Shown here: positions 8,237-43,994 of the stretch, one piece after another
Layout of the letters: every line of letters starts with the position of its first letter
How positions within the stretch are numbered: position 1 is the first letter of the stretch
Origin: Halogeometricum pallidum JCM 14848
GTDB lineage: Archaea; Halobacteriota; Halobacteria; Halobacteriales; Haloferacaceae
DNA: 64,000 nt
Direction: 5' to 3'
Assembly: GCF_000337095.1 (NCBI RefSeq)
Contig: NZ_AOIV01000024.1
Location: forward strand, 1,660 to 65,659
Notes under the pieces: model-generated
The model's input: only the letters and a program-made list of their open reading frames with translations
Told to the model about the DNA's origin: nothing
The model's database searches: none
Program-made: the position numbers and the translations under genes

Positions 8237-8854
8237 ATGAACGCAGACGACCTCGCAGACCGCATCCGCGACGACCACGAGACGGCGTTCTCCCGCCTCG
8301 GTTCCTCGAAGGCGCTGTACGCGTTGACCGGCGGCGAGATGGAGGCCGAGTCGGTCCGCGCCGCCGCGGCGACCGACCACCACGCCGTCGCGGACCTCCT
8401 CGACGACTGGGCGATGGCCGAACACGGCGACGCCGCGCCCGTGTTCGCGGACCTCGCCGAGGAGACGCGCGAACACGCCGAGTCGCTCGAACCCGACGGC
8501 TACGAACCCGCGGACGACCCCGACCTGTACGACCGCCTCGCGTTCGAGGACGAGACGCCGGGGCGCGTCGGCGCTCTGCTGGGACGGTACCTCGTCGTCT
8601 CCGAGTACGTCGGACAGATGGTCGGCTTCTTCATCGGCGACGCCGACCCGAAGGCGGCCGACGAGTTCCGCACGCTCCGCTCGGCCGTCGAGGACGAACG
8701 CGACCGGGTGCTCGACCTCTTGGACGACGTCTGCGGGGGCGACGACGACTGGGACGCCGCGGGTGAGGCGGCCGACGCCGTCGTCGAGGCGGCCTACGAC
8801 GACTACGTCGAGACGCTCGAATCGATGGGCGTGAAGCCGAAGAACGTCTGTTAA
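8237..8854 (+). CDS. Conserved haloarchaeal helical protein of unknown function
   Basis: 205 residues, strongly acidic (pattern rich in Asp, Glu, Ala) and predicted mostly helical with no membrane segment. It opens MNADDLADRIRDDHETAFSRLGSSKALYALTGGEME. I associate this opening with a widespread haloarchaeal family, but cannot assign a reaction; the E/H/D-rich helices are reminiscent of ferritin- or rubrerythrin-like bundles, which is only a guess. The TAA stop is followed with no gap by the structured repeat element at 8855, so the transcript's 3' end probably lies in that element. Confidence 0.75.
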   Translation: MNADDLADRIRDDHETAFSRLGSSKALYALTGGEMEAESVRAAAATDHHAVADLLDDWAMAEHGDAAPVFADLAEETREHAESLEPDGYEPADDPDLYDRLAFEDETPGRVGALLGRYLVVSEYVGQMVGFFIGDADPKAADEFRTLRSAVEDERDRVLDLLDDVCGGDDDWDAAGEAADAVVEAAYDDYVETLESMGVKPKNVC

Positions 8855-9014
8855 CCCACCTTTCTTTTCGGGGGTCCGAGCAGACGGCGAAGCCGTCTGC
8901 TCGAACCCCCGGAAGAAAGCTGGACCAAAGAATCGCCGCGAGGCTCACTTCGCTCGCCTCGCGGTACTACACGCTACTCTCCGCACCGCCTCCGCTTCCA
9001 CTGCACCGCTCTGA
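8855..9014 (+). repeat. Structured post-stop element, copy A
   Basis: Begins at the base after the TAA of the 8237 gene. Order: box CCCACCTTT (8855-8863); hairpin with outer arms 8869-8875/8905-8911 (CGGGGGT/ACCCCCG) and inner arms 8878-8888/8892-8902 (11 bp, loop GAA); box AAAGCTGGACCAAAG (8916-8930); second hairpin with arms 8936-8944/8956-8964 (9 bp) enclosing CTCACTTCGCTCG; then GCACCGCTCTGA (9003-9014). Copy B at 42514 has the same boxes in the same order with different stem sequences. It could be a 3' UTR, transcript terminator or processing signal, or a REP-like repeat. End point uncertain. Confidence 0.65.
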
Positions 9015-9131: not shown

Positions 9132-9401
9132 TCAGACACCTTCGACGCCCTTGCGGTACTCGAACACGTGGTCGCGGGCGGCCTGCGTGCGTTCGCTCAC
9201 CTCGCCGGACGTCTCGCGGGCTATCTCCGAGAGAATGTTCATGTGACGGTCCAACCGTCCGTGGTCGGGGTCGCGGTCCGACATCGCCAACTCGGCCAAC
9301 GCCTCGGCCTGTTCGGTGAGTCGGTCCTGCGTCTCGCCGTCGGCCGCCTCTGCGGCCGACCGGAGTTCCTCGCTCGCAGCCGTGAGTTCGTCTTGCGACA
9401 T
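9132..9401 (-). CDS. Small conserved haloarchaeal protein (DUF7553-like)
   Basis: 89 residues, acidic and helical: MSQDELTAASEELRSAAE at the start, HGRLDRHMNILSEI in the middle, FEYRKGVEGV at the end. I recognise the pattern of a small haloarchaeal-only family (I recall DUF7553; not checked). The heptad-like spacing of Leu and Ala suggests a coiled coil or helical hairpin. Function unknown. A TTTTTTA box on the minus strand at 9425-9431 is about 27 bases before the ATG, as for a leaderless transcript. It lies in the same direction as the small membrane protein upstream, 90 bases away. Confidence 0.8.
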   Translation of the reverse strand: MSQDELTAASEELRSAAEAADGETQDRLTEQAEALAELAMSDRDPDHGRLDRHMNILSEIARETSGEVSERTQAARDHVFEYRKGVEGV

Positions 9402-41800: not shown

Positions 41801-42512
41801 CCTCCTGAACTTCTCGAAGGAGTACCTCCCGGACAAGCGCGGCGGACAGATGGACGCGCCCCTCGTGATGTCCTCGCGCATCGACCCCTCCGAGATAGAC
41901 GACGAGGCGCACAACATGGACATCGTGCGGCGCTACCCCGAATCGTTCTACGAGGCGTCCCTTCGGATGGCCGACCCCGGAGAGGTCGAAGACGACATCA
42001 AACTCGGCGAGGACACCCTCGGTACCGACGAGGAGTACCGCGGGTTCGAGCACACTCACGACACCTCGGACATCGCCCTCGGCCCCGACCTCTCGGCGTA
42101 CAAGACGCTCGGGTCGATGATGGACAAGATGGACGCGCAACTCGAACTCGCTCGGAAACTCCGCGCCGTCGACGAGACGGACGTGGCCGAACGCGTCATC
42201 GAGTACCACTTCCTCCCGGACCTCATCGGTAACCTCCGCGCCTTCTCCAGACAGCAGACGCGGTGTCTCGACTGCGGGGAGAAGTACCGGCGGATGCCAC
42301 TGACGGGCGACTGCCGGGAGTGCGGCGGCCGCGTCAACCTCACCGTCCACCGCGGGTCCGTGAACAAGTACATGGACACCGCGATTCAGGTCGCCGAGGA
42401 GTTCGGCTGTCGCGACTACACGAAACAGCGCCTCGAAGTCCTCGAAAAGAGCCTCGAATCCGTCTTCGAGAACGACAAGAACAAGGCGTCGAAGTTGGGC
42501 GACTTCATGTGA
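38874..42512 (+). CDS. polC: DNA polymerase D large subunit DP2
   Basis: 1212 residues from a GTG at 38874 (VHEDDERYFARIEDRLDEAF). The catalytic subunit of archaeal PolD, which with DP1 replicates the chromosome. The NCDGDEDCVMLLMDG segment (N962-D968) contains the invariant catalytic aspartates. Zinc motifs: CPDCGQ..CPDCEVH..CEDCG..CERC from Cys714, and a C-terminal CLDCG..CRECG from Cys1131. An Asp/Glu/Gly/Ala-rich insert (about 280-315) is unlike the rest. No intein is present, even at the NCDGDED site used by inteins in several archaea. The DP1 gene is not in the window. Its TGA is one base before repeat element copy B. Confidence 0.97.
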   Translation: MHEDDERYFARIEDRLDEAFDLARAAKEQGRDPRPEVEIPVAKDMADRVENILEIPGVAERVRELEGEMSREEAALELVNDFVEGSVGDYDSRAGKVEGAVRTAVALLTEGVVAAPIEGIDRVEILENDDGTEFVNVYYAGPIRSAGGTAQALSVLVADFARSLLGIDEYKARDIETERYAEEVALYDKETGLQYSPKDKETKFIAEHMPIMLDGEATGDEEVSGFRDLERVDTNSARGGMCLVLAEGIALKAPKIQRYTRQLDEVDWPWLQDLIDGTYYDDGGEGEGESDGADADDADADGGGADDADDADDDSPEPPGPARVEPAAKYLRDLIAGRPVFGHPSESGGFRLRYGRSRNHGFATAGVHPATMHLVDDFLATGTQIKTERPGKAGGVIPVDSIEGPTVRLANGDVRRIDDPAEALEIRNGVEEILDLGEYLVNFGEFVENNHPLAPASYVYEWWVQEFESAGGPVQALEDDPGVDLEHPNPEKAFEWATEYDCHLHPDYTYVWHDISVAEFETLADAAASGRIAGVDEGRSSGPRTQSDEVESDGGMVVRPDAPDAADGVLELDRTPDLSRILERLLVEHTRTEETLRVPNWRLLVRSLGLSELLEREWTDLSPEAREWEGGDNAVKAVNEVAPFDVRERAPTRIGNRMGRPEKSESRDLSPAVHTLFPITEMGGNQRDVGEAARARNDRGQRGKLDVLVGDRACPDCGQHTYKNRCPDCEVHTEPHFECEDCGTVIEPDESGRVYCERCEREVESVDWFTVDLATELRSALESVGERESSYPILKGVKGLTSANKTPEPIEKGVLRAKHGVSSFKDGTVRYDMTDLPVTSVRPAELDVTVDHFRELGYETDIDGEPLRFDDQLVELKVQDVVLSDGAAEHMLKTADFVDDLLTKFYGLEPFYQVEERDELIGELVFGMAPHTSAAVVGRVVGFTSAAVGYAHPYFHAAKRRNCDGDEDCVMLLMDGLLNFSKEYLPDKRGGQMDAPLVMSSRIDPSEIDDEAHNMDIVRRYPESFYEASLRMADPGEVEDDIKLGEDTLGTDEEYRGFEHTHDTSDIALGPDLSAYKTLGSMMDKMDAQLELARKLRAVDETDVAERVIEYHFLPDLIGNLRAFSRQQTRCLDCGEKYRRMPLTGDCRECGGRVNLTVHRGSVNKYMDTAIQVAEEFGCRDYTKQRLEVLEKSLESVFENDKNKASKLGDFM

Positions 42513-42513
42513 G

Positions 42514-42660
42514 CCCACCTTTTTACTTCGTCGGGTCGCGCTCCGCGCGACCGCTCCTCGCAAAAAGCTGGATCAAAAAGATTCCGCGGACTCGCTCACT
42601 TCGTTCGCTCGCCGCGGCCTCCGTCCTCGTGTTCCCCGCGCCGCACAGCACCGCTCTCTG
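42514..42660 (+). repeat. Structured post-stop element, copy B
   Basis: Starts two bases after the polC TGA. Same architecture as copy A at 8855: box CCCACCTTTTT; hairpin arms 42534-42541/42545-42552 (GGTCGCGC/GCGCGACC, loop TCC); box AAAAAGCTGGATCAAAAAG (42562-42580); hairpin arms CCGCGG at 42584-42589 and 42612-42617 enclosing CTCACTTCGTTCG; and GCACCGCTCT at 42648-42657. Stem sequences differ from copy A but pairing is kept. Downstream is the stop of the convergent propeller gene. Confidence 0.65.
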
Positions 42661-42674
42661 ATGTCGCCCGTTCC

Positions 42675-43994
42675 TCACCCCGCTGGCCCGATACCGTGCA
42701 GGCCGTCGGCGGCGTCGACGTACACCGCGCTACCCACCGGCGTGACGCCGTAGACGCCCTGCATAATCTGGTCCGATACCTGTACCTCGGGCGTCCGGTA
42801 CGACCACAGACCTTCGCCCGTCGTCGCGTCGTAAGCGTAGAGCCACCCATCCTGCCGAGCGTAGAGGACGTCTCCCGCGCGACAGATCGGTTCGGCACGG
42901 CGACCGAATTCCCTCACCTGCGCGCCGTCTTCGGCGTCGAGTGCAAGCATCGCGTCGCCTGCGCCGCCGACGTAGACGGTTCCGCCGGCGACGACGGGCG
43001 GGCCGGGGCGGTTCCGGAACGGGCCCGTCCGCCACTCGACGCTCCCGTCACTCGCGTTCAGAGCGTACACTCGGTCGTCTTCGTTGCCGACGTGCCCCGC
43101 GACGTACGCCGTCCCGTCGGAGACGACGACGTTCGCCCACCGGTCGTGAACCGTGTCGGTCACGAATCGCTCCTCGCCGGTGGCGAGTTCGACGGCGCGG
43201 ATGTCCGCTTCGGTGGAGACGAAAACGGCACCGTCGCCGACGGCGGGCGTGGAGTTCGAGTCAAACCCTGACTCGTACGTCCAGCGCTCGGTGCCGTCGA
43301 AGTCGAACGCCGAAAGTTGCGGCTCCGTCTCGGTGAATCCGCCGCAGTTGACGAGGAGTGCGTCGTCTACGACGGTCGGCGCGCCCTGTATCCCTCTCGT
43401 CCGGGGGCCGCGCCACAGCACTTCGTCGCGGTCGGTGGCGAGACAGAACACTTCGGCGAACGTCGTGACGAACGCCCGGTCGTCGGCGACGGCGGGTGGA
43501 CTGTTCGTGCCGTAATCGACGAGTTCGGTCCGTGAACGAACAGTAGCCGTCGCAGGGTCGCGCCGGGTAAAGTCCGTCGTCTCGTCGCCCACGTGGAGGT
43601 TGTAGAGCGCCCCGTCAGCGACGCTCGGAACGTGCCCGCCGTTGAGCGACCAGTAGCCCACGCCGTCGCGGAGACCCTCGGCCTCGGACGCGTACCCGGT
43701 GTTCCCCGCGTCGAAACGGTACTGCGGCCACGACCCGTCGGGGTTCAGGGGCGGGTCGCCGGGCGGCGTCCGCGTGAGGCGTTCGTCCGGTCCGTCGGTC
43801 GGTCCGTACGTCTCGGTAGCGGGCGGCGACTCCGTCGGCGTCGCCGTCGACGGGCGAGGTGGTGCGTCGGTCGGCGAGGACGCGTCGTCTCCCCGCGAAG
43901 CGCACCCCGCGGCGGCCGCGAGGGCGAGACCGGATAGTTGGAGGAATGATCGGCGGGTCGAACGTCGGTCCGAACGGCGCGGTGGAGGGCGCAT
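42675..43994 (-). CDS. PQQ-like beta-propeller lipoprotein, Tat-exported
   Basis: 439 residues. N-terminal twin-arginine signal (RRSTRRSFLQLSGLA) and lipobox AAAAGCAS anchor it outside the cell. After a Pro/Thr/Ser-rich linker are seven or so WD/PQQ-like repeats (YASEAEGLRDGVGYWSLNG, VDYGTNSPPAVADDRAFVT, GEERFVTDTVHDRW, VYALNASDGSVEWRTG, AYDATTGEGLWSY), as in BamB-like and pyrrolo-quinoline quinone-binding domains. It may be a scaffold or enzyme on the surface; cofactor use is not shown. Convergent with the polC tail element. Confidence 0.82.
   Translation of the reverse strand: MRPPPRRSDRRSTRRSFLQLSGLALAAAAGCASRGDDASSPTDAPPRPSTATPTESPPATETYGPTDGPDERLTRTPPGDPPLNPDGSWPQYRFDAGNTGYASEAEGLRDGVGYWSLNGGHVPSVADGALYNLHVGDETTDFTRRDPATATVRSRTELVDYGTNSPPAVADDRAFVTTFAEVFCLATDRDEVLWRGPRTRGIQGAPTVVDDALLVNCGGFTETEPQLSAFDFDGTERWTYESGFDSNSTPAVGDGAVFVSTEADIRAVELATGEERFVTDTVHDRWANVVVSDGTAYVAGHVGNEDDRVYALNASDGSVEWRTGPFRNRPGPPVVAGGTVYVGGAGDAMLALDAEDGAQVREFGRRAEPICRAGDVLYARQDGWLYAYDATTGEGLWSYRTPEVQVSDQIMQGVYGVTPVGSAVYVDAADGLHGIGPAG

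What the first reader, a model, noticed from the sequence alone, without database searches (positions are those of the whole stretch)
8855..9014. Structured post-stop element with co-varying stems, copy A (paired with 42514)
The two copies share boxes in the same order (CCCACCTTT, AAAGCTGGA-CAAA, CTCACTTCG-TCG, GCACCGCTCT). Between boxes are two hairpins whose stem sequences differ (GAGCAGACGGC against GGTCGCGC; CCGCGAGGC against CCGCGG) while keeping pairing. Both begin 0-1 bases after a stop codon. Such a pattern points to selection on RNA structure: a 3' UTR, terminator or processing signal. I half-remember similar strings in other haloarchaeal genomes, but I know no described function.
Basis: partly seen in the sequence, partly recalled or inferred. 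Interest (0 to 1): 0.62.

Follow-up and report, generated by a model that had tools for sequence, protein, structure and literature searches.

The report
Haloarchaeal gene-end hairpin module family
The two copies belong to a large, apparently undescribed family of folded ~70-120-base modules that salt-loving archaea place exactly at the ends of genes, most probably to stop transcription from both sides, and that can be recognised by simple pairing rules.

Summary
The window (genus near Halogeometricum) holds 2 of about 20 copies in its genome; relatives occur across class Halobacteria but patchily. Architecture: stop codon, NN-ACC-U(n), long hairpin, A(n)-KCU-N'N', ACC-A(n), GC-rich second hairpin. 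NN and N'N' are complementary in 134 of 137 elements (shuffle expectation under half). 79 of 91 elements behind a same-strand CDS start -2..+5 nt from its stop codon; none lie at 6-59. In 862 kb of the own genome, scanned without using stops or pairing, 11 of 13 do. Others sit at tRNA 3' ends or abut promoters. In 13 orthologous gene groups the element persists across genomes while its stems turn over with compensation. A third tract, outside the hairpin, has a length that tracks the U:A helix. Rfam has no such family, and I found no description in the papers searched. Best reading: a transcription-unit-boundary module, probably a two-sided terminator/insulator built on archaeal U-tracts. No RNA data were available, so function is inferred. 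The near absence of G-U pairs means RNA-level against DNA-level action is unresolved.

The parts
8237..8854 (+). Upstream CDS of copy A (205 aa, C-terminus KNVC, no Pfam or NCBIfam match); stop TAA 8852-8854
   Evidence: orthologues in G003, G004, G010, G026 carry an element at the same stop
8856..8866 (+). Copy A 5' arm base: NN=CC (8856-8857), ACC (8858-8860), T tract TTTCTT (8861-8866)
8856..8923 (+). Copy A hp1: long hairpin, N'N'=GG at 8922-8923, C.C mismatch 8859/8920
   Evidence: fold z -7.2; R1 match 59.7 bits at 8854-8934
8924..8929 (+). Copy A third tract: ACC + AAA, unpaired in hp1; on the minus strand TTTGGT
8936..8964 (+). Copy A hp2: CCGCGAGGC..GCCTCGCGG, then trailing box near 8963-8970
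9132..9401 (-). Convergent downstream CDS beyond copy A (89 aa, no NCBIfam match)
41901..42512 (+). 3' part of the DP2 (PolC, DNA polymerase II large subunit) gene upstream of copy B; stop TGA 42510-42512
   Evidence: Pfam PF24846; H. limi orthologue 93% identical
42515..42524 (+). Copy B 5' arm base: NN=CC (42515-42516), ACC, T5 (42520-42524)
42515..42571 (+). Copy B hp1, with A5 (42562-42566), GCT and N'N'=GG (42570-42571)
   Evidence: R1 match 82.2 bits at 42513-42582
42572..42579 (+). Copy B third tract: ATC + AAAAA; on the minus strand TTTTTGATCCAGCTTTTT
42584..42617 (+). Copy B hp2: CCGCGG..CCGCGG around ACTCGCTCACTTCGTTCGCTCG
42675..43661 (-). Convergent downstream CDS beyond copy B
   Evidence: gene caller

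Best explanation
It is a transcription-unit-boundary module of Halobacteria, most likely a two-sided transcription terminator/insulator. Shown: it lies directly behind the stop codon (or tRNA 3' end) of its gene and puts a U(n) tract 3-10 nt after that end on the sense strand. On the opposite strand it offers hairpin 2 followed by U(n)-GGU-NN-AGM-U(n). It folds into one long imperfect hairpin (hp1) whose stems, including the two base pairs touching the stop, covary. Inferred: archaeal RNA polymerase leaving the gene is destabilised at the U tract, helped by aCPSF1/FttA and/or hp1 in RNA that reads through; polymerase arriving from the far side stops at the hairpin plus double U tract, so neither transcript invades the other gene or promoter.
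For: Placement: 79/91 at -2..+5 nt from a same-strand stop, 127/137 at a defined gene boundary; own-genome scan that used neither stops nor pairing 11/13. It is not a by-product of generic T runs: T5 starts within 10 nt of the stop in only 2 of 764 element-free genes. tRNA 3' ends carry it too, so translation is not the common factor. A fold is conserved: NN/N'N' complementary in 134/137, shuffle mean 51 of 117 against 114 observed; x-stem and T:A positions covary; 13 orthologous groups with at least 14 compensated NN changes. In the 15 reverse-oriented members that carry a copied 3' end, the convergent gene's stop lies within 62 nt of the A3 side in most, again putting U tracts behind a gene end. 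Established: T-stretch termination in H. volcanii was confirmed in vivo (95% in a control) and one hairpin terminated at 59% (PMC7237163).
Against: No RNA 3'-end data were available. Downstream genes of stop-adjacent members are convergent no more often than background (39:40 against 354:395). About 7 members lie between divergent genes, where no gene needs a terminator. If transcripts stop at the first U tract, hp1 is never transcribed, yet it is conserved. Whole genera (g14, g12, several others) have no or hardly any copies. Stems have very few G-U pairs (5/875 against 10/224 in tRNA acceptor stems), unexpected for a purely RNA constraint.
Confidence: 0.5

Rival explanations
1. RNA 3' stabiliser or processing signal: transcription runs on, hp1 forms directly behind the stop or tRNA end, and it blocks 3'-5' decay or marks a cleavage site. 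Termination happens elsewhere.
For: hp1 is very stable (mean z -4.5); apical loops favour the forward strand (Y-rich UUC(G) type 78 against R-rich 31, p 8e-6); H. volcanii 3' UTRs have a median of 97 nt (PMC7237163), long enough to contain hp1.
Against: Does not explain the third tract whose length tracks the U:A helix, nor members abutting promoters, nor the lack of G-U pairs.
Confidence: 0.2
2. A dispersing palindromic DNA repeat (REP or MITE-like) that targets gene 3' ends; function is secondary.
For: Within-genome look-alike subfamilies (e.g. G051, G006/G033); whole-module replacement at the same stop; 23/137 flanked by a direct copy of a gene or tRNA 3' end, control 0/135; patchy presence.
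Against: Position kept at core genes across genera; nothing on phages and one weak plasmid hit; the two Y1 transposase matches lie on contigs without detected elements; duplication lengths vary (about 14-45 nt); random insertion plus purifying selection would not give an empty 6-59 nt gap.
Confidence: 0.15
3. DNA-level element: a cruciform or a protein-bound site that isolates supercoiling domains or blocks polymerase at gene borders; the hairpin acts in DNA.
For: Pairing is almost purely Watson-Crick (NN: 270 of 274 cells; apical GU 5/875); constant mismatches (C.C, UC/UC) sit inside otherwise near-perfect stems; border placement in both orientations.
Against: Forward-strand loop bias; quasi-palindrome correction by template switching could also remove G-U pairs.
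Confidence: 0.15

Closest known systems
Archaeal U-tract terminators (H. volcanii T-stretch; aCPSF1/FttA-dependent ends)
   Same: T(4-6) run on the sense strand just after the gene, and T runs on the other strand of the module too
   Different: The U tract is the 5' arm of a conserved hairpin, at a fixed 3-10 nt from the stop, with a matched A tract inside and a further A tract outside the hairpin
Bacterial intrinsic (rho-independent) terminators, bidirectional type
   Same: Minus strand reads hairpin 2 then U(n)
   Different: On the sense strand U(n) precedes the hairpin; conserved internal loops, C.C mismatch and sequence boxes; covarying NN pair at the stop codon
REP/BIME palindromes with RAYT transposases
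   Same: Repeated imperfect palindromes in intergenic DNA, often 3' of genes
   Different: Longer, with exact abutment to stop codons, no GTAG/CGTC-type end tag seen, no linked RAYT gene found
Tandem T5-CCTCC-AGG-T4-hairpin-A5-GTGG units behind DP2 in Haloferax
   Same: Two T tracts 8 nt apart, hairpin, A tract, next to a gene end
   Different: Resembles the module in reverse orientation; repeated with copies of the DP2 3' end; seen by eye only, homology not tested

Membership tests
Any Rfam 15 family | Match at or above the family's gathering score | tested here: not met
   0 matches in the whole window; sub-threshold hits are unrelated miRNA/lncRNA hairpins far below cut-off
Archaeal intrinsic/U-tract terminator | U-rich tract on the sense strand shortly after the gene | tested here: met
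   U(n) begins 3-10 nt after the stop in 79/91
Archaeal intrinsic/U-tract terminator | Transcripts end there in vivo | not testable with these tools
Bacterial-type intrinsic terminator (sense strand) | GC-rich hairpin immediately followed by a U run | tested here: not met
   On the sense strand the U run precedes the hairpin and A runs follow it
Bacterial-type intrinsic terminator (antisense strand) | Hairpin followed within a few nt by a U run | tested here: inconclusive
   Spacing A3 to hp2 is 0-5 nt in most, but hp2 is only moderately stable (mean z -1.0) and the simple scan did not list copy A
REP/RAYT system | Stand-alone Y1 transposase (RAYT) associated with the repeats | tested here: not met
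   Two PF01797 matches in the genome, on contigs C19 and C21 without detected elements
Transposon-derived MITE | Fixed-length target-site duplication and terminal inverted repeats of a transposase in the genome | tested here: inconclusive
   Direct copies of gene 3' ends in 23/137, lengths variable about 14-45 nt; transposase ends not compared

The most novel reading that the evidence does not exclude
The module is a new kind of gene-border element with a recognition rule of its own: n(U) = n(A inside) = n(A outside), a covarying NN pair touching the stop codon and constant C.C and UC/UC mismatches. This implies a dedicated binding factor or a three-strand or switching structure that reads the same module on both strands.
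Probability: 0.2. Interest if true: 0.82.

Novelty: new variant of a known kind. Interest (0 to 1): 0.64.

Why it matters
Transcription ends in archaea are thought to need little more than a U tract. A widespread, precisely placed, covarying gene-end structure in a whole class would be a defined substrate for asking how archaeal polymerase, aCPSF1/FttA or an unknown factor set gene borders. The U-tract length, NN pair and third-tract length give single-variable mutants. It also gives annotators a sequence mark for transcription-unit ends in many Halobacteria genomes.

Tried and rejected
Rfam membership: none. REP/RAYT link: no adjacency. Phage or plasmid origin: no phage match, one weak plasmid match in Halomicrobium. 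Convergent-gene-specific terminator: rejected, stop-adjacent members show no convergent excess. Non-coding RNA genes upstream of the non-stop members: only tRNAs found. k-turn motif in hp1: no tandem G.A on both strands, dropped. Purine triplex suggested by copy A (TTTCTT/AAGAAA/AAAGAA): the tail is explained equally by the run-length rule (3,3,3), so not claimed. Strand test by wobble type: inconclusive, since apical stems show GU 5 against AC 1, while the first x-stem pair shows A.C 25 against G.T 1. An apparent T.G excess in hp1 was a register artefact. Paper searches found no description of this element; subscription literature is not covered.

Full report
OBSERVATION. Both copies are present as described, with shared boxes, differing stems and start positions 0 and 1 nt after TAA and TGA. 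The central box is specific: 2 occurrences in the window against 0.04 expected. Copy A folds strongly (z -7.2) and copy B alone does not (z 0.0), so two copies could not have settled the matter. The own genome (4.38 Mb, nearest named relative Halogeometricum limi) holds about 20 copies.

ARCHITECTURE. From own-genome copies and 120 hit regions in relatives the module reads: NN-ACC-T(n)-x-UC-GG..apical hairpin..CC-(N)-C-UC-x'-A(n)-KCT-N'N'-ACC-A(n)-hp2-GGTRCRAC. The T tract, the inner A tract and NN/N'N' are the two strands of one long hairpin (hp1). Constant irregularities sit in it: a C.C mismatch next to NN (or G-C in the AGC variant), a UC/UC internal loop closed by covarying pairs (C-G 41, G-C 32, T-A 11) and an optional bulged base. 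A covariance model R1 was built from 15 own-genome copies.

COVARIATION. Elements were collected by a regular expression that imposes neither NN pairing nor a stop codon (the loci themselves came largely from the R1 search). NN and N'N' are fully complementary in 134 of 137 (CC/GG 78, CG/CG 39, GG/CC 8, GC/GC 7, GA/TC 2). In the 117-element subset 114 pair, against a shuffle mean of 51 and a maximum of 67 in 2000 shuffles. These are cells, not independent events. The stronger test is orthology: 13 groups of orthologous upstream genes carry the element at the same stop in 2 to 8 genomes. Within groups NN changes among CC, CG, GG, GC and GA, always with its partner; by parsimony on distinct states this gives at least 14 double changes (my count from the listing). 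DP2 alone shows four NN states and three different stop codons. Whole modules are also swapped at one stop, which suggests gene conversion or re-copying between sites within a genome.

PLACEMENT. With a simple codon-usage gene caller, 79 of 91 elements behind a same-strand CDS begin at -2..+5 nt from its stop and none at 6-59 nt. Over all 137: 79 stop-adjacent, 13 at tRNA 3' ends or a copy of one, 15 reverse-oriented with a copy of the neighbouring 3' end at the NN side, 3 with a convergent stop within 100 nt, 17 with NN 20-62 nt upstream of a divergent start (abutting BRE/TATA-like sequence), 10 other. The scan of 862 kb of own genome found 13 paired elements: 11 at -1..+4 nt of a stop, 1 at a tRNA 3'-end copy, 1 unassigned. 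A 14th regex hit overlaps an element abutting a divergent promoter. Only 2 of 764 other genes have T5 starting within 10 nt of the stop. Stop-adjacent members are followed by convergent and codirectional genes 39:40, as background, so the module belongs to the gene it follows. Own upstream genes include DP2 and others that look like chromosomal housekeeping genes by eye from their sequences.

THIRD TRACT. Pattern searches over 116 genomes of the class with the U and inner A tract both fixed at 4, 5 or 6 show that the outer A tract follows. Counted by hand from the listed matches, n=4 gives 3/4/5/6+ = 2/128/15/2; n=5 gives 0/5/68/38; n=6 gives 0/1/2/24. Tails of the form AAAAAG were excluded by the pattern in all three searches, so the 5 column is low but comparable. 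The reversed control pattern gave 0 everywhere. Within genomes n1=n3 in 105 of 137 against a shuffle mean of 86, maximum 99 in 5000. Hairpin pairing explains n1=n2 but not n3. The easiest reading is that n2 and n3 are the two U tracts of a minus-strand terminator; a switch or third-strand contact is not excluded. Members of one subfamily are not independent.

RNA OR DNA. hp1 is much more stable than shuffles (mean z -4.5), hp2 moderately (z -1.0; control region 0.0). Apical loops favour pyrimidines on the forward strand (78:31), hinting at forward RNA. Yet G-U pairs are 5/875 in apical stems against 10/224 in tRNA acceptor stems from the same loci (p 1e-4), and the first x-stem pair has A.C 25 times and G.T once. 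I leave this open.

DISTRIBUTION. R1 finds it in 44 of 60 relatives. Strong hits are confined to class Halobacteria; hits elsewhere in the phylum are 39-55 nt weak hairpins. Whole genera have none or hardly any (g14, g12). No phage match and one weak plasmid match.

MECHANISM. Shown: position, fold, compensation, tract rules. Inferred: sense-strand U(n) ends transcription directly behind the gene; the opposite strand stops incoming polymerase at hp2 plus double U tract. Published work on H. volcanii supports T stretches as the main intergenic terminator and a hairpin as a weaker one (PMC7237163). The passages I read there do not describe this module, and the Haloferax DP2 loci examined lack it in this form. 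Confidence 0.5, because no transcript ends were available.

NOVELTY. No Rfam family and no description in the open papers searched. Function-wise it resembles known terminators, so I file it as a new variant of a known kind, with an unusual rule set.

Noticed in passing
L063:1318-1502, L171 (minus) 1775-1580, L204 (minus) 1734-1560; also L058, L060, L066, L177, L203: tRNA 3' ends (15-27 nt) are repeated directly about 120-270 nt upstream-to-copy distance, the copy lying just before the element; in the three read in full an inverted T-arm copy lies in between.
   Followed up: partly
L039, L042, L057, L062, L067, L070-L072, L216, L218, L227, L229, L243, L246, L247: 15 of 137 elements have, at their NN side, a direct copy (about 14-45 nt) of sequence from beyond their far end, mostly the 3' end of the convergent gene; 0 of 135 controls. 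L247 holds a second copy of the gene end followed by the start of another element.
   Followed up: partly
L088, L090, L091, L092, L105, L108, L140 (Haloferax), after the DP2 stop: DP2 3' end (last ~12 codons plus stop) repeated in tandem, each repeat preceded by T5-CCTCC-AGG-T4-hairpin-A5-GTGG, resembling the module in reverse.
   Followed up: no
L119, L143 (Natronomonas), after the DP2 stop: CGACCTTTTTG directly behind the stop without the rest of the module: possibly a minimal form.
   Followed up: no
L155/L021 and L168/L169, hp2: hp2 loop sequence inverted between orthologous positions, as expected of palindrome inversion or template switching.
   Followed up: no
window 8237-8854: 205-aa gene ending KNVC with no Pfam or NCBIfam family, retained with an element at its stop in at least five genomes.
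   Followed up: no
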